A stretch of DNA of 64,000 bases from Spartobacteria bacterium (GTDB lineage Bacteria > Verrucomicrobiota > Verrucomicrobiia > Chthoniobacterales > UBA10450): contig PLCM01000020.1 of NCBI GenBank assembly GCA_003134765.1, positions 1-64,000 on the forward strand, read 5' to 3'. This document shows positions 1 through 3,381 of the stretch, piece by piece (within the stretch, counting starts at the first letter, position 1; the number at the start of each line of letters is the position of its first letter). The notes below the pieces were generated by a model that was not told the origin of the DNA, did no database searches, and saw nothing but the letters and a program-made list of their open reading frames with translations. Position numbers and translations under genes: made by a program.

Positions 1-133
1 TCCCTTCATGTCATCTATGCGATGGAGCCGACGGCGAGCCGGCGTTATACCTAGTTTTCTCATGACTTCCTTACCTTTTCCCGCCGCGAGGCGCGCTCTC
101 GCTCGCCGCCGCTCATCTTGTTCTCGTTAGACG
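1..133 (+). other. attC-like recombination site, partial
   Basis: The right end reads GCCGCCGCTCATCTTGTTCT then CGTTAGAC, where GTTAGAC fits the integron core-site consensus GTTRRRY. Bases about 21-41 (GATGGAGC, CGACGGCGAGC) are an imperfect reverse complement of bases about 96-115, as expected for paired L arms. The left-most core (RYYYAAC) is not recognisable, so the site may be degenerate or incomplete at the window edge. The VOC gene starts 2 bases after the core, the usual spacing in an integron cassette. The right arm closely resembles those of the sites at 551-671 and 3294-3381. Confidence 0.45.
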
Positions 134-134
134 T

Positions 135-542
135 ATGCTCGCGCACACCATGAAGGAAGCTTCAGAAAGTCTTTTGCATATCGCGCCCGTTTTCCGCGTG
201 GCCGATATTCCTCGCTCGCTTGCGTTCTATCGCGATCGGCTCGGCTTCACCGTCGAGTTTGTTCACGAGAGTTTCTACGCGGGAGTTTGCCGCGATGGCT
301 GCCACATTCATTTGAAGTGCTCTTCACCCACACCACGCGACCAAACCGCATTTGAGCGCGAGGAGCACATCGACATCTGCATCAGCGTTCAGAGTGCAGA
401 GACGCTCTCGGAGCGTTTTGCTTCTGCGGGCGTTGCATTCGTTGTCCCATTGCGCCACATGCCGTATGGCACAGAGTTCTATATTCGCGATCCAGACGGA
501 TATGTCTTGGGTTTCGTTCAGTCCACGCCAACCTCCAAATGA
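135..542 (+). CDS. VOC-fold (glyoxalase/bleomycin resistance-like) protein
   Basis: 135 residues, a single VOC unit: the opening beta strand IAPVFRVADIPRSLAFYRDR, a central strand CHIHLKCS, a second betaalphabeta half from EEHIDICISV, and a closing FYIRDPDGYVLGFVQ. The DPDG-x-x-LGF ending is diagnostic of the family. VOC proteins are small metalloenzymes or ligand-binding/resistance proteins, and the substrate cannot be read here. ATG 135 is adjacent to an attC-like core; ATG 150 (MKEASE) is an equally good start. VOC proteins are common integron cassette cargo, which fits the flanking sites. The ORF is complete and lies on the same strand as the hydrolase that follows. Confidence 0.85.
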   Translation: MLAHTMKEASESLLHIAPVFRVADIPRSLAFYRDRLGFTVEFVHESFYAGVCRDGCHIHLKCSSPTPRDQTAFEREEHIDICISVQSAETLSERFASAGVAFVVPLRHMPYGTEFYIRDPDGYVLGFVQSTPTSK

Positions 543-550
543 CCGCAAAC

Positions 551-671
551 GTCAAACAGACGATGCAGCGAACGCCTACCCGCTGTTCGCTCCCCACTTT
601 CCATGATTAAAACCCTCCACATCCGATTGACGCTCGCCCTCGGTAGGCGTCGCTGATCTCTTTCGTTAGGC
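551..671 (+). other. attC-like site between two cassette genes
   Basis: A 121-base imperfect palindrome ends in CGTTAGGC (core GTTAGGC fits GTTRRRY) and begins with GTCAAAC (one base off RYYYAAC). Inside, CAGCGAACGCCTACC on the left pairs with GGTAGGCGTCGCTG on the right, with a single unpaired A. Such an extrahelical base is typical of folded attC sites, and 121 bases is within the known attC size range. It lies directly after the VOC stop codon and 14 bases before the hydrolase ATG. Family assignment is by structure only; no integrase gene is visible in the window. Confidence 0.6.
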
Positions 672-684
672 CTCATCGCGCGCT

Positions 685-1815
685 ATGAACATTGGAACCT
701 TTTTCGGCCACGCTTCTTTCGCACTTTTTTGCCTGATATCCGGGACCCCCGGACTGACTGCTGAGGATGCACCGCAGCCGAAAGCGATTGACTCGGAGTA
801 TCGTAAGTTCGATGGGCTACTTTCACTGCTGCGGTCGCGCAATACACAGCAGTTCGCCATCCGTTCCGCGAAGGGCATTGATGAGGCGAGCTTCGTTTCC
901 ATCGGCGGCATCGAACAGTGGGTCACGATTCGTGGCTGGGATCGTGACAACCCGGTGTTGCTATTCCTGCACGGTGGGCCCGGTGACGTGACAAATCCCT
1001 GGGCCTTCGCGTTATTCGCCGCTTGGGAGAAGCAGTTCACGGTGGTGCAATGGGATCAGCGAGGCGCAGGGAGGACGTTGCGAAAAAGTGGCCTCGCAGT
1101 CGCGCCGACGATCACGGTTCCTAAAATGGTGGCGGATGGCATCGAGCTTTCGGATTACTTGCGCAAGCACCTGGGCAAAGAGAAGGTGATCATCGTGGCC
1201 CATTCGTTTGGTTCAATCATCGGTCTGCAAATGGCGCGAGCAAAACCCGAACTCTTCTACGCATACGTGGGCACGGGTCAGGTCGGGGACAACGCTAAGA
1301 ACTACTTTGTGGCCTACGAAGAGTTACTGAAAAAGGCACGAGCGATTGGTAACCAAGAGGCCATTGATGACCTGACCCGCGTCGGCCCACCGCCCTACAA
1401 ATCCGGTGAAGGATACGGCGTGCAGCGGAGATGGGCGAATGCCTTCGAGGGAGCGGATCAGTTCTTATTCGGAACGATTGGCCTCACACTCGTCGCCCCG
1501 GGCAATTCCATGCAAGACCTTAATGACTCCGCCGATGGTCAGAACCTGAGCGGTGAGCAACTCGTCCCGCAAACGAAGTCAATTGGAGCACAGGAGCTTG
1601 GTCAGGAATTTTCGGTGCCGATTTTTTTCTTTCAAGGCGCTGAAGATTTCACGACACCGACGGCGCTGGCCCGGAAATATCTCGACTCGATCAAGGCACC
1701 CCGGAAGGCATTTGTCTCAATTCAAGGTGGCGGGCACTTTGCCGTCTTCATGAACTCCAAACAGTTCTTGCAGGAACTTGTGACGCGAGTTCGCCCGTTA
1801 GCTGTCAGGCAATAG
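685..1815 (+). CDS. secreted alpha/beta hydrolase, proline iminopeptidase-like
   Basis: 376 residues starting with a plausible signal peptide (MNIGTFFGHASFALFCLISG then GLTAED). The alpha/beta hydrolase fold is clear: the oxyanion segment FLHGGPGDVTNPWA around residue 95, nucleophile motif AHSFGS with Ser174, an acid in GAEDFTTP (Asp321) and the catalytic His351 in GGGHFAVF. HGGPG plus WDQRGAGRT points to the S33/prolyl aminopeptidase-like branch. The true substrate (peptide, ester or lactone) is unknown. The gene follows an attC-like core with a 13-base spacer and would form a second cassette of about 1.26 kb. Confidence 0.85.
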   Translation: MNIGTFFGHASFALFCLISGTPGLTAEDAPQPKAIDSEYRKFDGLLSLLRSRNTQQFAIRSAKGIDEASFVSIGGIEQWVTIRGWDRDNPVLLFLHGGPGDVTNPWAFALFAAWEKQFTVVQWDQRGAGRTLRKSGLAVAPTITVPKMVADGIELSDYLRKHLGKEKVIIVAHSFGSIIGLQMARAKPELFYAYVGTGQVGDNAKNYFVAYEELLKKARAIGNQEAIDDLTRVGPPPYKSGEGYGVQRRWANAFEGADQFLFGTIGLTLVAPGNSMQDLNDSADGQNLSGEQLVPQTKSIGAQELGQEFSVPIFFFQGAEDFTTPTALARKYLDSIKAPRKAFVSIQGGGHFAVFMNSKQFLQELVTRVRPLAVRQ

Positions 1816-1854
1816 ACTCCGATTAGTATAAGGCTAAGATTAACGGCGGAGTCT
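1814..1854 (+). terminator. stem-loop after the hydrolase gene
   Basis: AGACTCCG at 1814-1821 pairs with CGGAGTCT at 1847-1854 across a 25-base loop, beginning inside the stop codon. There is no T-run, so it is a weak terminator candidate and could simply be part of the cassette end. Confidence 0.25.
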
Positions 1855-1860
1855 CCCAAG

Positions 1861-1930
1861 GCCTAAACCCCTATGTAAGGAGTCAAGCGTAGATGCAGGT
1901 GTGGGTTGGTTTTAGTTCATTGGGTTAGGT
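1861..1930 (+). other. possible attC-like site, degenerate
   Basis: GCCTAAACCC at the left and GGGTTAGGT at the right form an inverted pair 70 bases apart; GTTAGGT fits GTTRRRY and GCCTAAAC is one inserted base away from RYYYAAC. Adjacent CCCTATGTAA and TTAGTTCATTGGG can also pair partly. Weaker than the 551-671 site, but correctly placed after the hydrolase. Confidence 0.3.
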
Positions 1931-2175
1931 AAGGTGGGTGGATTGAGGTTTGGGTCGCTTCCTCTTCCTTTGACTCGGTCGGTTTGTTTCCAGCGGCTCT
2001 TACTCCTATCCGTGCATCCGGCCGCAGCCGGAGCACCATTTGATCAATGCGATTTTTTGGCAGAGGAACTTGAGGCGGCCCAATCTAAGGCGTCGAACAA
2101 GGACGTGTCACCTTTTTCAGGTTAAATGACGGGCGCGCCTCACGTTCCAAAGTGGTAAGTGATGATCAGTGGGGC

Positions 2176-2372
2176 GGCGTGTTTTGGTTCATTTCTGTTC
2201 CATTATCGGTTCCTATCATAAAGTGAGCATTAAGCATCTGGACGCCTATCTGGACGAGCTAGAGCATCGCTTCAATAATCGGAAAAACGAATACATTTTC
2301 AGGGATACTCTCATGAAGCTGGTGACGGCTGCGAAGCTTCCTTACTCGGAGTTGGTGAAGAGGGCGGCGTGA
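2176..2372 (+). pseudogene. IS1595/ISXO2-type transposase remnant (3' end)
   Basis: One frame reads IIGSYHKVSIKHLDAYLDEL then EHRFNNRKN and ends in the stop at 2370-2372. This is the conserved C-terminal signature of ISXO2-like DDE transposases (IS1595 family). Just upstream GVFWFIS is readable in another frame, matching the family's FWSLFKR segment, so a frameshift separates the two pieces. Only about 60 of roughly 300 residues remain; the preceding 1931-2175 holds no recognisable transposase sequence and no other gene that I can support. The ORF-track start (GTG 2169) is not a real gene start. The last 62 bases overlap, antisense, the end of the next gene. Confidence 0.7.
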
Positions 2373-3282
2373 TTAATTCTCTTAAAAGCAGCCCGTCCCC
2401 ACTGAATGTCATCTGTGTTTGTTTGTCGCGCACGTTACTGTCTGTCACAACGAATTTCGGTATATTCAGCGTCACCGTGTTCTGACTATTGATTATTAAG
2501 GTGACCGACGCGCTTTCTATTTCGATGCCTGCGGGCAGGAGGTAAGCCGGGAAATTGAGCACAAGAGAACGTGCGTTCTCTGCCAATGACCTGACTGGCT
2601 TGCCCATCATGGGATTGTCGAAAGAACAATTTACCGTGAAGTTTAGTCCTCCATCTCCTTCGTTAAAATATTGAATGGTTGAACCCATAATCAATAGTTG
2701 GCCGTCTTTCATCAGGGCAGCGCCAGTGCTAGGACCATAATCCGTGATGCTAGAAGGCTTCTCTTTCTTGCTTTCGTCCTGTCTCCTCTTCAAGACGATG
2801 AAGAAACGGGCGGACAATAATGGTTTATCCAATGGGTCCGCCTCTATCCGTCGCTCTTTCATCGCCTTGTTGGCCGCAGCTAACTCAGTTTTTACCGTTT
2901 CAAGCTCTTTGCGAACCTCCACGTCTTTTACATCAAATGTTATAGGCGCTGGCGTTGCGCTCTTTAGTGCATTCTCCGCTGCCGTTTTAGCTTTCTCTGC
3001 CTCCTTCTTAGCAGCGTGTTCTTCGCTGTATAAAGCCGCAGGAGTGAAGATGAGAACATTCAATAAGAACACTACCAGGAAAGCGCACGCTGTTATTAAC
3101 GCCGCAATCCCGAAGTCTCTCAGTGCCCGCTTCGCTTCTTCGTGCTGCTTGCGACAGCGCAAAAACCAAAATGTGCCAAAGAATATGCCGAGCGCGATCA
3201 CGGCTGACAAAAACGAGCGGTCGAAAACGAGATTCCATGTGTTAGTGAACGCTCTTTGAAGTAATGTCTGGAGGTAGTCCAT
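2311..3282 (-). CDS. hypothetical membrane protein with coiled-coil segment
   Basis: 323 residues, not recognised as a named family. Two N-terminal membrane helices are visible (about residues 21-41, LSAVIALGIFFGTFWFL, and 55-77, AALITACAFLVVFLLNVLIF). A charged Ala/Lys/Glu-rich helical stretch follows (about 85-150, EEHAAKKEAEKAKTAAENAL), probably a coiled coil, then a soluble beta-rich domain to the end. The ATG lies next to an attC-like site, so this may be a cassette gene carried in reverse orientation. The last 20 or so residues (Pro/Ser-rich) are encoded antisense to the transposase remnant, so the original C-terminus may have been replaced. Base composition is A+T-richer than the housekeeping genes to the right. 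Confidence 0.6.
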   Translation of the reverse strand: MDYLQTLLQRAFTNTWNLVFDRSFLSAVIALGIFFGTFWFLRCRKQHEEAKRALRDFGIAALITACAFLVVFLLNVLIFTPAALYSEEHAAKKEAEKAKTAAENALKSATPAPITFDVKDVEVRKELETVKTELAAANKAMKERRIEADPLDKPLLSARFFIVLKRRQDESKKEKPSSITDYGPSTGAALMKDGQLLIMGSTIQYFNEGDGGLNFTVNCSFDNPMMGKPVRSLAENARSLVLNFPAYLLPAGIEIESASVTLIINSQNTVTLNIPKFVVTDSNVRDKQTQMTFSGDGLLLRELITPPSSPTPSKEASQPSPAS

Positions 3283-3293
3283 TTCTCAGGTTT

Positions 3294-3381
3294 GCGACGA
3301 TTACTCCCTGCGTCAAGCCGATAATCCCGCTTCGATTAACGCTCGCTCCGGTAGCCGTCGCTGATCTTATTCTCGTTAACA
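3294..3381 (+). other. attC-like site, degenerate
   Basis: GCTCGCTCCGGTAGCCGTCG then CTGATCTTATTCTCGTTAAC is nearly the same as the right arm of the 551-671 site. GCGACGATTAC at 3294-3304 pairs 9 of 11 with GTAGCCGTCGC at 3351-3361. The core reads GTTAACA rather than GTTRRRY and no clear left core is seen, so it looks decayed. Confidence 0.35.

What the first reader, a model, noticed from the sequence alone, without database searches (positions are those of the whole stretch)
1..3381. Integron-like cassette run with attC-type sites and no integrase in view
Seen: sites ending in CGTTAGAC, CGTTAGGC and CGTTAAC share near-identical right arms (CGTCGCTGATCT-like). The 551-671 site folds into a long stem with one unpaired base, 121 bases long, and lies between a VOC gene and a hydrolase gene with short spacers. 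A weaker site follows the hydrolase. The implied cassettes are about 0.54 and 1.26 kb. Known: attC sites fold this way, and VOC genes are frequent cassette cargo. Inferred: a chromosomal cassette array, perhaps a decayed one or one captured far from its IntI.
Basis: partly seen in the sequence, partly recalled or inferred. Interest (0 to 1): 0.72.

Follow-up and report, generated by a model that had tools for sequence, protein, structure and literature searches.

The report
Integron array eroded by attC-seeking transposons
The left end of this soil-bacterium contig is the tail of a real integron gene-cassette array, and the array is cut up by a transposon that inserts into the integron's own recombination sites, apparently steered by a guide RNA it carries.

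Summary
The integron reading holds. An attC covariance model built only from 20 sites outside the window finds 551-671 (83.8 bits, E 1.8e-23) and 10-132 (80.8 bits). The same genome (Chthoniobacterales, Verrucomicrobiota) carries about 40 attC sites and one intact integron integrase with a likely attI on another contig. No integrase is in view because the window starts at a contig end.

The cause of that break is the new part. Window bases 1-16 and 1870-about 2201 are ends of a multi-copy IS1111/IS110-type insertion sequence that enters attC between the R'' box and the spacer (CTAACC^ATGCGATG), in one orientation. In relatives it is 1.3-1.6 kb with an RNA-guided-type transposase. Its non-coding end, with covarying helices, holds two segments matching the two halves of the target (YCUAACC, then GAUCGCAU).

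It works like the Pseudomonas/Klebsiella IS1111-attC elements, but the transposase is far from known ones and its nearest relatives insert elsewhere: a new variant of a known kind. Guidance and any effect on cassettes are inferred.

The parts
1..16 (-). left end (7-bp extension and sub-terminal repeat) of a multi-copy IS1111-type insertion sequence; the rest is off the contig
   Evidence: TCCCTTCATGTCATCT equals the conserved end of complete copies in relatives and the ends of contigs C17 and C27
17..132 (+). attC site without its R'' box (split by the insertion sequence); R' GTTAGAC 126-132
   Evidence: held-out covariance model hit 10-132, 80.8 bits, E 1.4e-22
127..665 (+). gene cassette 1 (about 0.54 kb) with VOC/glyoxalase-superfamily gene 135-542
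   Evidence: PF00903 60.9 bits; R'' matches rc of own 5' core 6/7
551..671 (+). complete attC site (R'' 551-557, R' 665-671)
   Evidence: held-out covariance model hit 83.8 bits, E 1.8e-23
685..1815 (+). alpha/beta-hydrolase gene of cassette 2 (cassette starts at 666)
   Evidence: PF00561 66.1 bits
1861..1869 (+). R'' box of the attC of cassette 2 (GCCTAAACC, one extra A), complementary to the cassette's own 5' end GTTAGGC
   Evidence: sequence; own-cassette rule as; same junction in the other copies
1870..2201 (-). decayed non-coding (guide-RNA) end of an IS1111-type insertion sequence; transposase missing
   Evidence: 81-87% identical to four other long copies in this genome; aligned with complete copies
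2169..2372 (+). C-terminal remnant of an IS1595/ISXO2-like transposase
   Evidence: PF12762 residues 11-36, 25.5 bits, just under the cut-off of 27
2311..3282 (-). 323-aa membrane-protein ORF, opposite to the array
   Evidence: weak DUF4153 match below cut-off
3327..3381 (+). right half of an attC (R' GTTAACA 3375-3381), left half absent; last trace of the array
   Evidence: 53 bases 94% identical to the right half of an attC on contig C24; no model hit

Best explanation
Bases 1-3381 are the distal, eroded end of a chromosomal integron cassette array in a Chthoniobacterales (Verrucomicrobiota) genome. Cassettes were laid down by an IntI acting on folded attC sites; an intact IntI gene with a likely attI survives on another contig. 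The array has been invaded by a multi-copy IS1111-type insertion sequence whose DEDD transposase is probably steered by an RNA from the element's non-coding end. Two segments of that RNA (YCUAACC and GAUCGCAU) match the two halves of the attC junction CTAACC^ATGCGAT, so the element enters attC between R'' and the spacer in one orientation. Insertion separates R'' from the rest of attC and should stop that site from recombining; copies then decay, leaving a footprint such as window 1861-2201. Shown: attC sites, IntI, element ends, insertion point, restored empty sites, covarying RNA helices, guide-like matches. Inferred: that the RNA guides, that transposition is active, that insertion freezes cassettes, and which IntI served this array.
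For: attC: model R1 from 20 non-window sites with 24 pairs, 92.9% of cells paired, 10 pairs with two-sided changes, 0/500 shuffles reach the covariation score; window hits E 1.8e-23 and 1.4e-22; 42 hits at E<=1 in the genome; each R'' complements its own cassette's 5' core, 145/161 bases and 15 of 23 perfect. IntI: TIGR02249 466 bits, cut-off 265, aligned over 311 residues to V. cholerae IntI4 (2a3v, E 2.6e-90); core site TTCTCGTTAGG just after intI, also in relatives. Insertion sequence: three array contigs stop at CTAACC|CCTATGTAGGG, three start at ...CATGTCATCT|AYGCG; complete copies in relatives with transposase NF033542 191.9 bits against a cut-off of 140, PF02371 and PF01548; 34 of 39 non-coding ends abut an exact CTAAC and four more a one-base variant; joining flanks restores attC sites without target duplication. 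Guides: exact CTAACC upstream of ATCGCAT in 16 of 35 non-coding ends (the rest mostly decayed or truncated), 0 in 200 shuffled sets; helices covary (38 two-sided cells against 11.5 expected, 0/500).
Against: No complete copy of the element is assembled in this genome; its anatomy comes from relatives. The R'' positions are near-invariant in attC, so guide-target covariation between copies cannot be tested. The window's own copy has lost one guide match (UUUAACC for CUAACC). Which array and IntI the window belongs to is unresolved. No expression or recombination data.
Confidence: 0.9

Rival explanations
1. The sites are ordinary intergenic palindromes or a repeat family, not attC sites, and no integron is involved.
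For: The single-strand fold of the window sites is only slightly better than shuffles (z about -1).
Against: Held-out model hits at E 1e-22, covariation, R''/R' cores with the own-cassette rule, IntI and attI-like site in the same genome.
Confidence: 0.02
2. The array is a CALIN: cassettes put into a secondary chromosomal site by an IntI acting in trans, never attached to an integrase.
For: No intI on the known part of this contig; several attC clusters sit on contigs without intI; CALINs are common (PMC8618304).
Against: The contig breaks inside an attC at the window edge, so the neighbourhood is unknown; at least one sister array has an adjacent IntI.
Confidence: 0.35
3. The element in attC is a group II intron (as the known group IIC-attC introns) or a target-duplicating IS, not an IS1111-type element.
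For: Group IIC introns are known to associate with integrons (PMC7923331); the ends lack classical terminal repeats.
Against: The encoded protein is an IS110-family transposase, not a reverse transcriptase; no Rfam match; sub-terminal repeats with 3/7-bp extensions; no duplication.
Confidence: 0.02
4. Targeting of attC is by protein recognition or by the folded site; the matching segments in the non-coding RNA are incidental or serve donor binding.
For: attC can fold; no biochemical data here.
Against: Segments match each side exactly to the insertion point, in the order reported for IS1111 seekRNAs (PMC11187229), beside covarying helices and against zero in shuffles.
Confidence: 0.15

Closest known systems
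IS1111-attC group (ISKpn4, ISPst6, ISPa21, ISPa25; [quoted passage not shown] seekRNA shown in PMC11187229)
   Same: IS1111-type anatomy; non-coding region downstream of the transposase gene; inserts at one end of attC; a non-coding RNA with a top-strand match 5' of a bottom-strand match. From memory of the 2008 abstract (paper not held): Pseudomonas arrays often end in a degenerate footprint of such an element, as here.
   Different: Different phylum; the best matches among 5,000 plasmid records are about 35% identical to the transposase (named elements such as IS4321, ISKpn2 and ISEc45 23-27%), though the ISKpn4 sequence itself was not in hand. Verrucomicrobiota relatives at 38-49% identity insert at non-attC sites, which suggests a separate origin of attC targeting.
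Chromosomal integrons of Verrucomicrobiota and other phyla (PMC8618304)
   Same: IntI, attI-like site, 123-nt attC sites, mostly unknown single-gene cassettes
   Different: In this genome the intact intI points towards the cassettes (atypical); arrays are heavily interrupted by insertion sequences
[quoted passage not shown]
   Same: intI transcribed towards the attI-like site and cassettes on contig C24
   Different: Different phylum; the related Verrucomicrobiota intI loci in which attC sites were detected show the usual divergent layout

Membership tests
integron cassette array (attC) | R'' and R' core sites, L boxes with extrahelical bases, conserved fold | tested here: met
   for 10-132 and 551-671; half site only at 3327-3381
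integron cassette array (attC) | R'' of each attC complementary to the 5' core of its own cassette | tested here: met
   145/161 bases over 23 cassettes; window VOC cassette 6/7; hydrolase cassette R'' by eye
integron | IntI with the integron-specific region | tested here: met
   TIGR02249 466 bits; alignment to 2a3v covers residues 28-338; on another contig
integron | attI beside intI and the array | tested here: met
   TAATTCTCGTTAGGTC right after the intI stop on C24, similar site in five relatives; not on the window's contig; attI function not tested
integron | cassette excision and integration by IntI | not testable with these tools
   needs experiment or reads of several strains
IS1111 family insertion sequence | DEDD plus Transposase_20 transposase | tested here: met
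   NF033542, PF01548, PF02371 over cut-offs, in relatives; only fragments in this genome
IS1111 family insertion sequence | long non-coding region downstream of the transposase gene | tested here: met
IS1111 family insertion sequence | sub-terminal inverted repeats of 11-13 bp with 7- and 3-bp extensions, no target duplication | tested here: met
   ATGWAGGGAGT, extensions AGATGAC and CCT; empty sites restored
IS1111 family insertion sequence | seekRNA with top-strand match 5' of bottom-strand match | tested here: met
   sequence prediction only; RNA itself not shown
IS1111-attC group | inserts specifically in attC | tested here: met
   34/39 exact plus 4 near; joined flanks give attC sites
IS1111-attC group | transposase belongs to the ISKpn4/ISPst6/ISPa25 clade | tested here: inconclusive
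   best plasmid match about 35%; those sequences not in hand for a tree
IS1111-attC group | same insertion point within attC as ISKpn4/ISPst6 | not tested
   source paper PMC2447020 not held

The most novel reading that the evidence does not exclude
A Verrucomicrobiota lineage of IS1111-type elements evolved attC targeting independently of the Pseudomonas IS1111-attC group by changing its guide RNA, and now lives almost only in integron attC sites, where successive invasion and decay sets the ends of cassette arrays.
Probability: 0.5. Interest if true: 0.65.

Novelty: new variant of a known kind. Interest (0 to 1): 0.5.

Why it matters
It extends attC-specific, apparently RNA-guided transposons to soil Verrucomicrobiota and gives dozens of natural insertions with a predicted guide, so both the targeting rule and its evolution (close relatives insert elsewhere) can be tested. 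The effect of IS1111-group insertions on integron function is described as having limited experimental evidence (PMC11616780). It also explains a practical artefact: integron arrays in metagenome assemblies break at these elements and then look integrase-less.

Tried and rejected
Rfam search of window and element copies gave no matching family. Group II intron and target-duplicating IS readings of the element were dropped once the transposase was found. The window's ISXO2/IS1595 fragment was first suspected to be the repeated element; it is a separate, smaller remnant. The motif CGTCGCTGATCT alone is uninformative. Pairing of contig ends across the element could not be resolved from R'' and R' letters. 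The Tetu and Holmes paper is not held. Relatives did not help to place the array boundary: right of 2380 nearly all matches in the genus were attC pieces. RNAalifold on the non-coding end gave only a weak consensus; the helices counted were drawn by eye.

Full report
Setting. The window is bases 1-64000 of contig C38 of a 4.05-Mb, 41-contig genome, so its left edge is a contig end. Titles of relatives found with the transposase (Spartobacteria, Chthoniobacterales, Verrucomicrobia; palsa and soil) place it in Chthoniobacterales, Verrucomicrobiota.

attC sites. Right arms like those in the finding occur about 30 times in the genome. Twenty full sites from other contigs were aligned. A 24-pair structure with extrahelical bases in the left arm fits them: 92.9% of cells paired, 10 pairs with two-sided changes, no shuffle reaching the covariation score. 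The model built from them finds 551-671 (83.8 bits, E 1.8e-23) and 10-132 (80.8 bits, E 1.4e-22) in the window and nothing credible elsewhere; 42 places match at E<=1 in the genome. All eight genomes of the genus have attC sites, up to 125. The R'' of each attC is complementary to the 5' core of its own cassette (145/161 bases, 15 of 23 perfect; the same comparison with the site's own R' gives 132/161), as expected of IntI-made cassettes.

Integrase. C24 carries an intact IntI (TIGR02249 466.6 bits against a cut-off of 265; aligned to V. cholerae IntI4 2a3v at E 2.6e-90). The gene points towards the cassettes, and TAATTCTCGTTAGGTC follows right after its stop; five relatives with similar IntI have a like site there. 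In the other relatives with detectable attC sites the layout is the usual divergent one. IntI fragments lie on C2, C9, C32 and C39. IntI above the cut-off is present in 50 of 147 relatives.

Why no integrase is in view. Array contigs end at attC sites. Three exits (C24, C11, C15) stop within 25 bases after YCTAACC|CCTATGTAGGG; three entries (C38 = window, C17, C27) begin with ...CCCTTCATGTCATCT|AYGCG, the spacer of attC. This is one repeated element sitting in attC. Diverged copies of its non-coding end lie in the window (1870-2201), C8, C9 and C32 (two).

The element. Relatives hold complete copies: 16 of 58 genomes match, 6 of 8 in the genus including this one. Complete copies are mostly 1.3-1.6 kb and encode a transposase scoring 191.9 bits to NF033542, 'IS110 family RNA-guided transposase', cut-off 140, with PF01548 and PF02371. 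The long non-coding end lies downstream of the transposase gene; sub-terminal repeats ATGWAGGGAGT have extensions AGATGAC and CCT. These are the IS1111 rules given in PMC11187229. Of 39 distinct non-coding ends, 34 abut an exact CTAAC and four a one-base variant. Joining flanks restores attC sites, for example GCCTAACC^AATCGATGGAGCC...TTCTCGTTAGGC, with no target duplication. Relatives of the transposase at 38-49% identity, mainly Opitutae and Synoicihabitans, have other flanks.

Guide prediction. In transposase sense the non-coding end carries ...YCTAACCTG... and, usually 67-73 nt later, GATCGCATTGATC. The target in that sense is CATCGCAT^GGTTAGRY: the first segment is complementary to the right half from the insertion point, the second equals the left half up to it. 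Order (top-strand match first) agrees with IS1111 seekRNAs (PMC11187229). Exact matches in this order occur in 16 of 35 non-coding ends and in none of 200 shuffled sets; most of the others are truncated or decayed. The flanking helices covary: 94.7% of cells paired, 38 two-sided cells against 11.5 expected, 0/500 (the structure was drawn by eye from these sequences, which leans in its favour).

The window re-read. 1-16: end of one copy, splitting the first attC. 17-132: rest of that attC. 135-542: VOC gene (PF00903). 551-671: intact attC. 685-1815: hydrolase (PF00561). 1861-1869: R'' of the hydrolase cassette. 1870-2201: decayed non-coding end with the second guide segment kept and the first mutated. 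2169-2372: remnant of an ISXO2-like transposase. 2311-3282: reversed ORF. 3327-3381: attC right half. Array traces end there.

Comparison. Attack on attC by IS1111-type elements is known in Pseudomonas and in class 1 integrons (PMC11187229, PMC11616780, PMC11089894). My recollection of the Tetu and Holmes abstract, not checked, is that degenerate footprints often mark array ends there; the window shows the same picture. The transposase is distant from plasmid-borne relatives (about 35% at best), so this is filed as a new variant that works like the IS1111-attC group, with membership in that clade undecided.

Limits. No expression, reads or second strain; E-values of the home-made model are rough; the link between window and IntI contig is not resolved.

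Noticed in passing
L039:3870-5000 (contig C24): Intact intI is co-directional with the cassettes and followed directly by an attI-like site TAATTCTCGTTAGGTC; five relatives share it, while others with detectable attC sites have the divergent layout.
   Followed up: partly
contigs C2, C9, C32, C39 (L046, L048, L045, L047): Fragments of further integron integrases, 49-68% identical to the intact one, suggest several dead integrons in one genome.
   Followed up: partly
L039:7284-8307: An ISXO2/IS1595-type transposase gene sits after an attC left arm (GTCTAACCATGCGATGGAGCGG), i.e. a second IS family inside an attC.
   Followed up: no
L039:10488-10796 and the matching cassette of L043; L058:5008-5433 and the third cassette of L044: Near-identical cassettes occur in two arrays of the same genome.
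   Followed up: no
G002 against G000, G003, G007: The relative with most attC sites (125) has almost no copies of the attC insertion sequence, while genomes with 5-11 matches have 24-38 sites; eight genomes only, so no test.
   Followed up: no
window 2311-3282, minus strand: A 323-aa membrane-type ORF runs against the array and overlaps the transposase remnant; no clear family.
   Followed up: no
G031 (12 matches) contig ends: Many copies lie exactly at contig ends, so attC insertion sequences probably fragment integrons in many soil metagenome assemblies.
   Followed up: no
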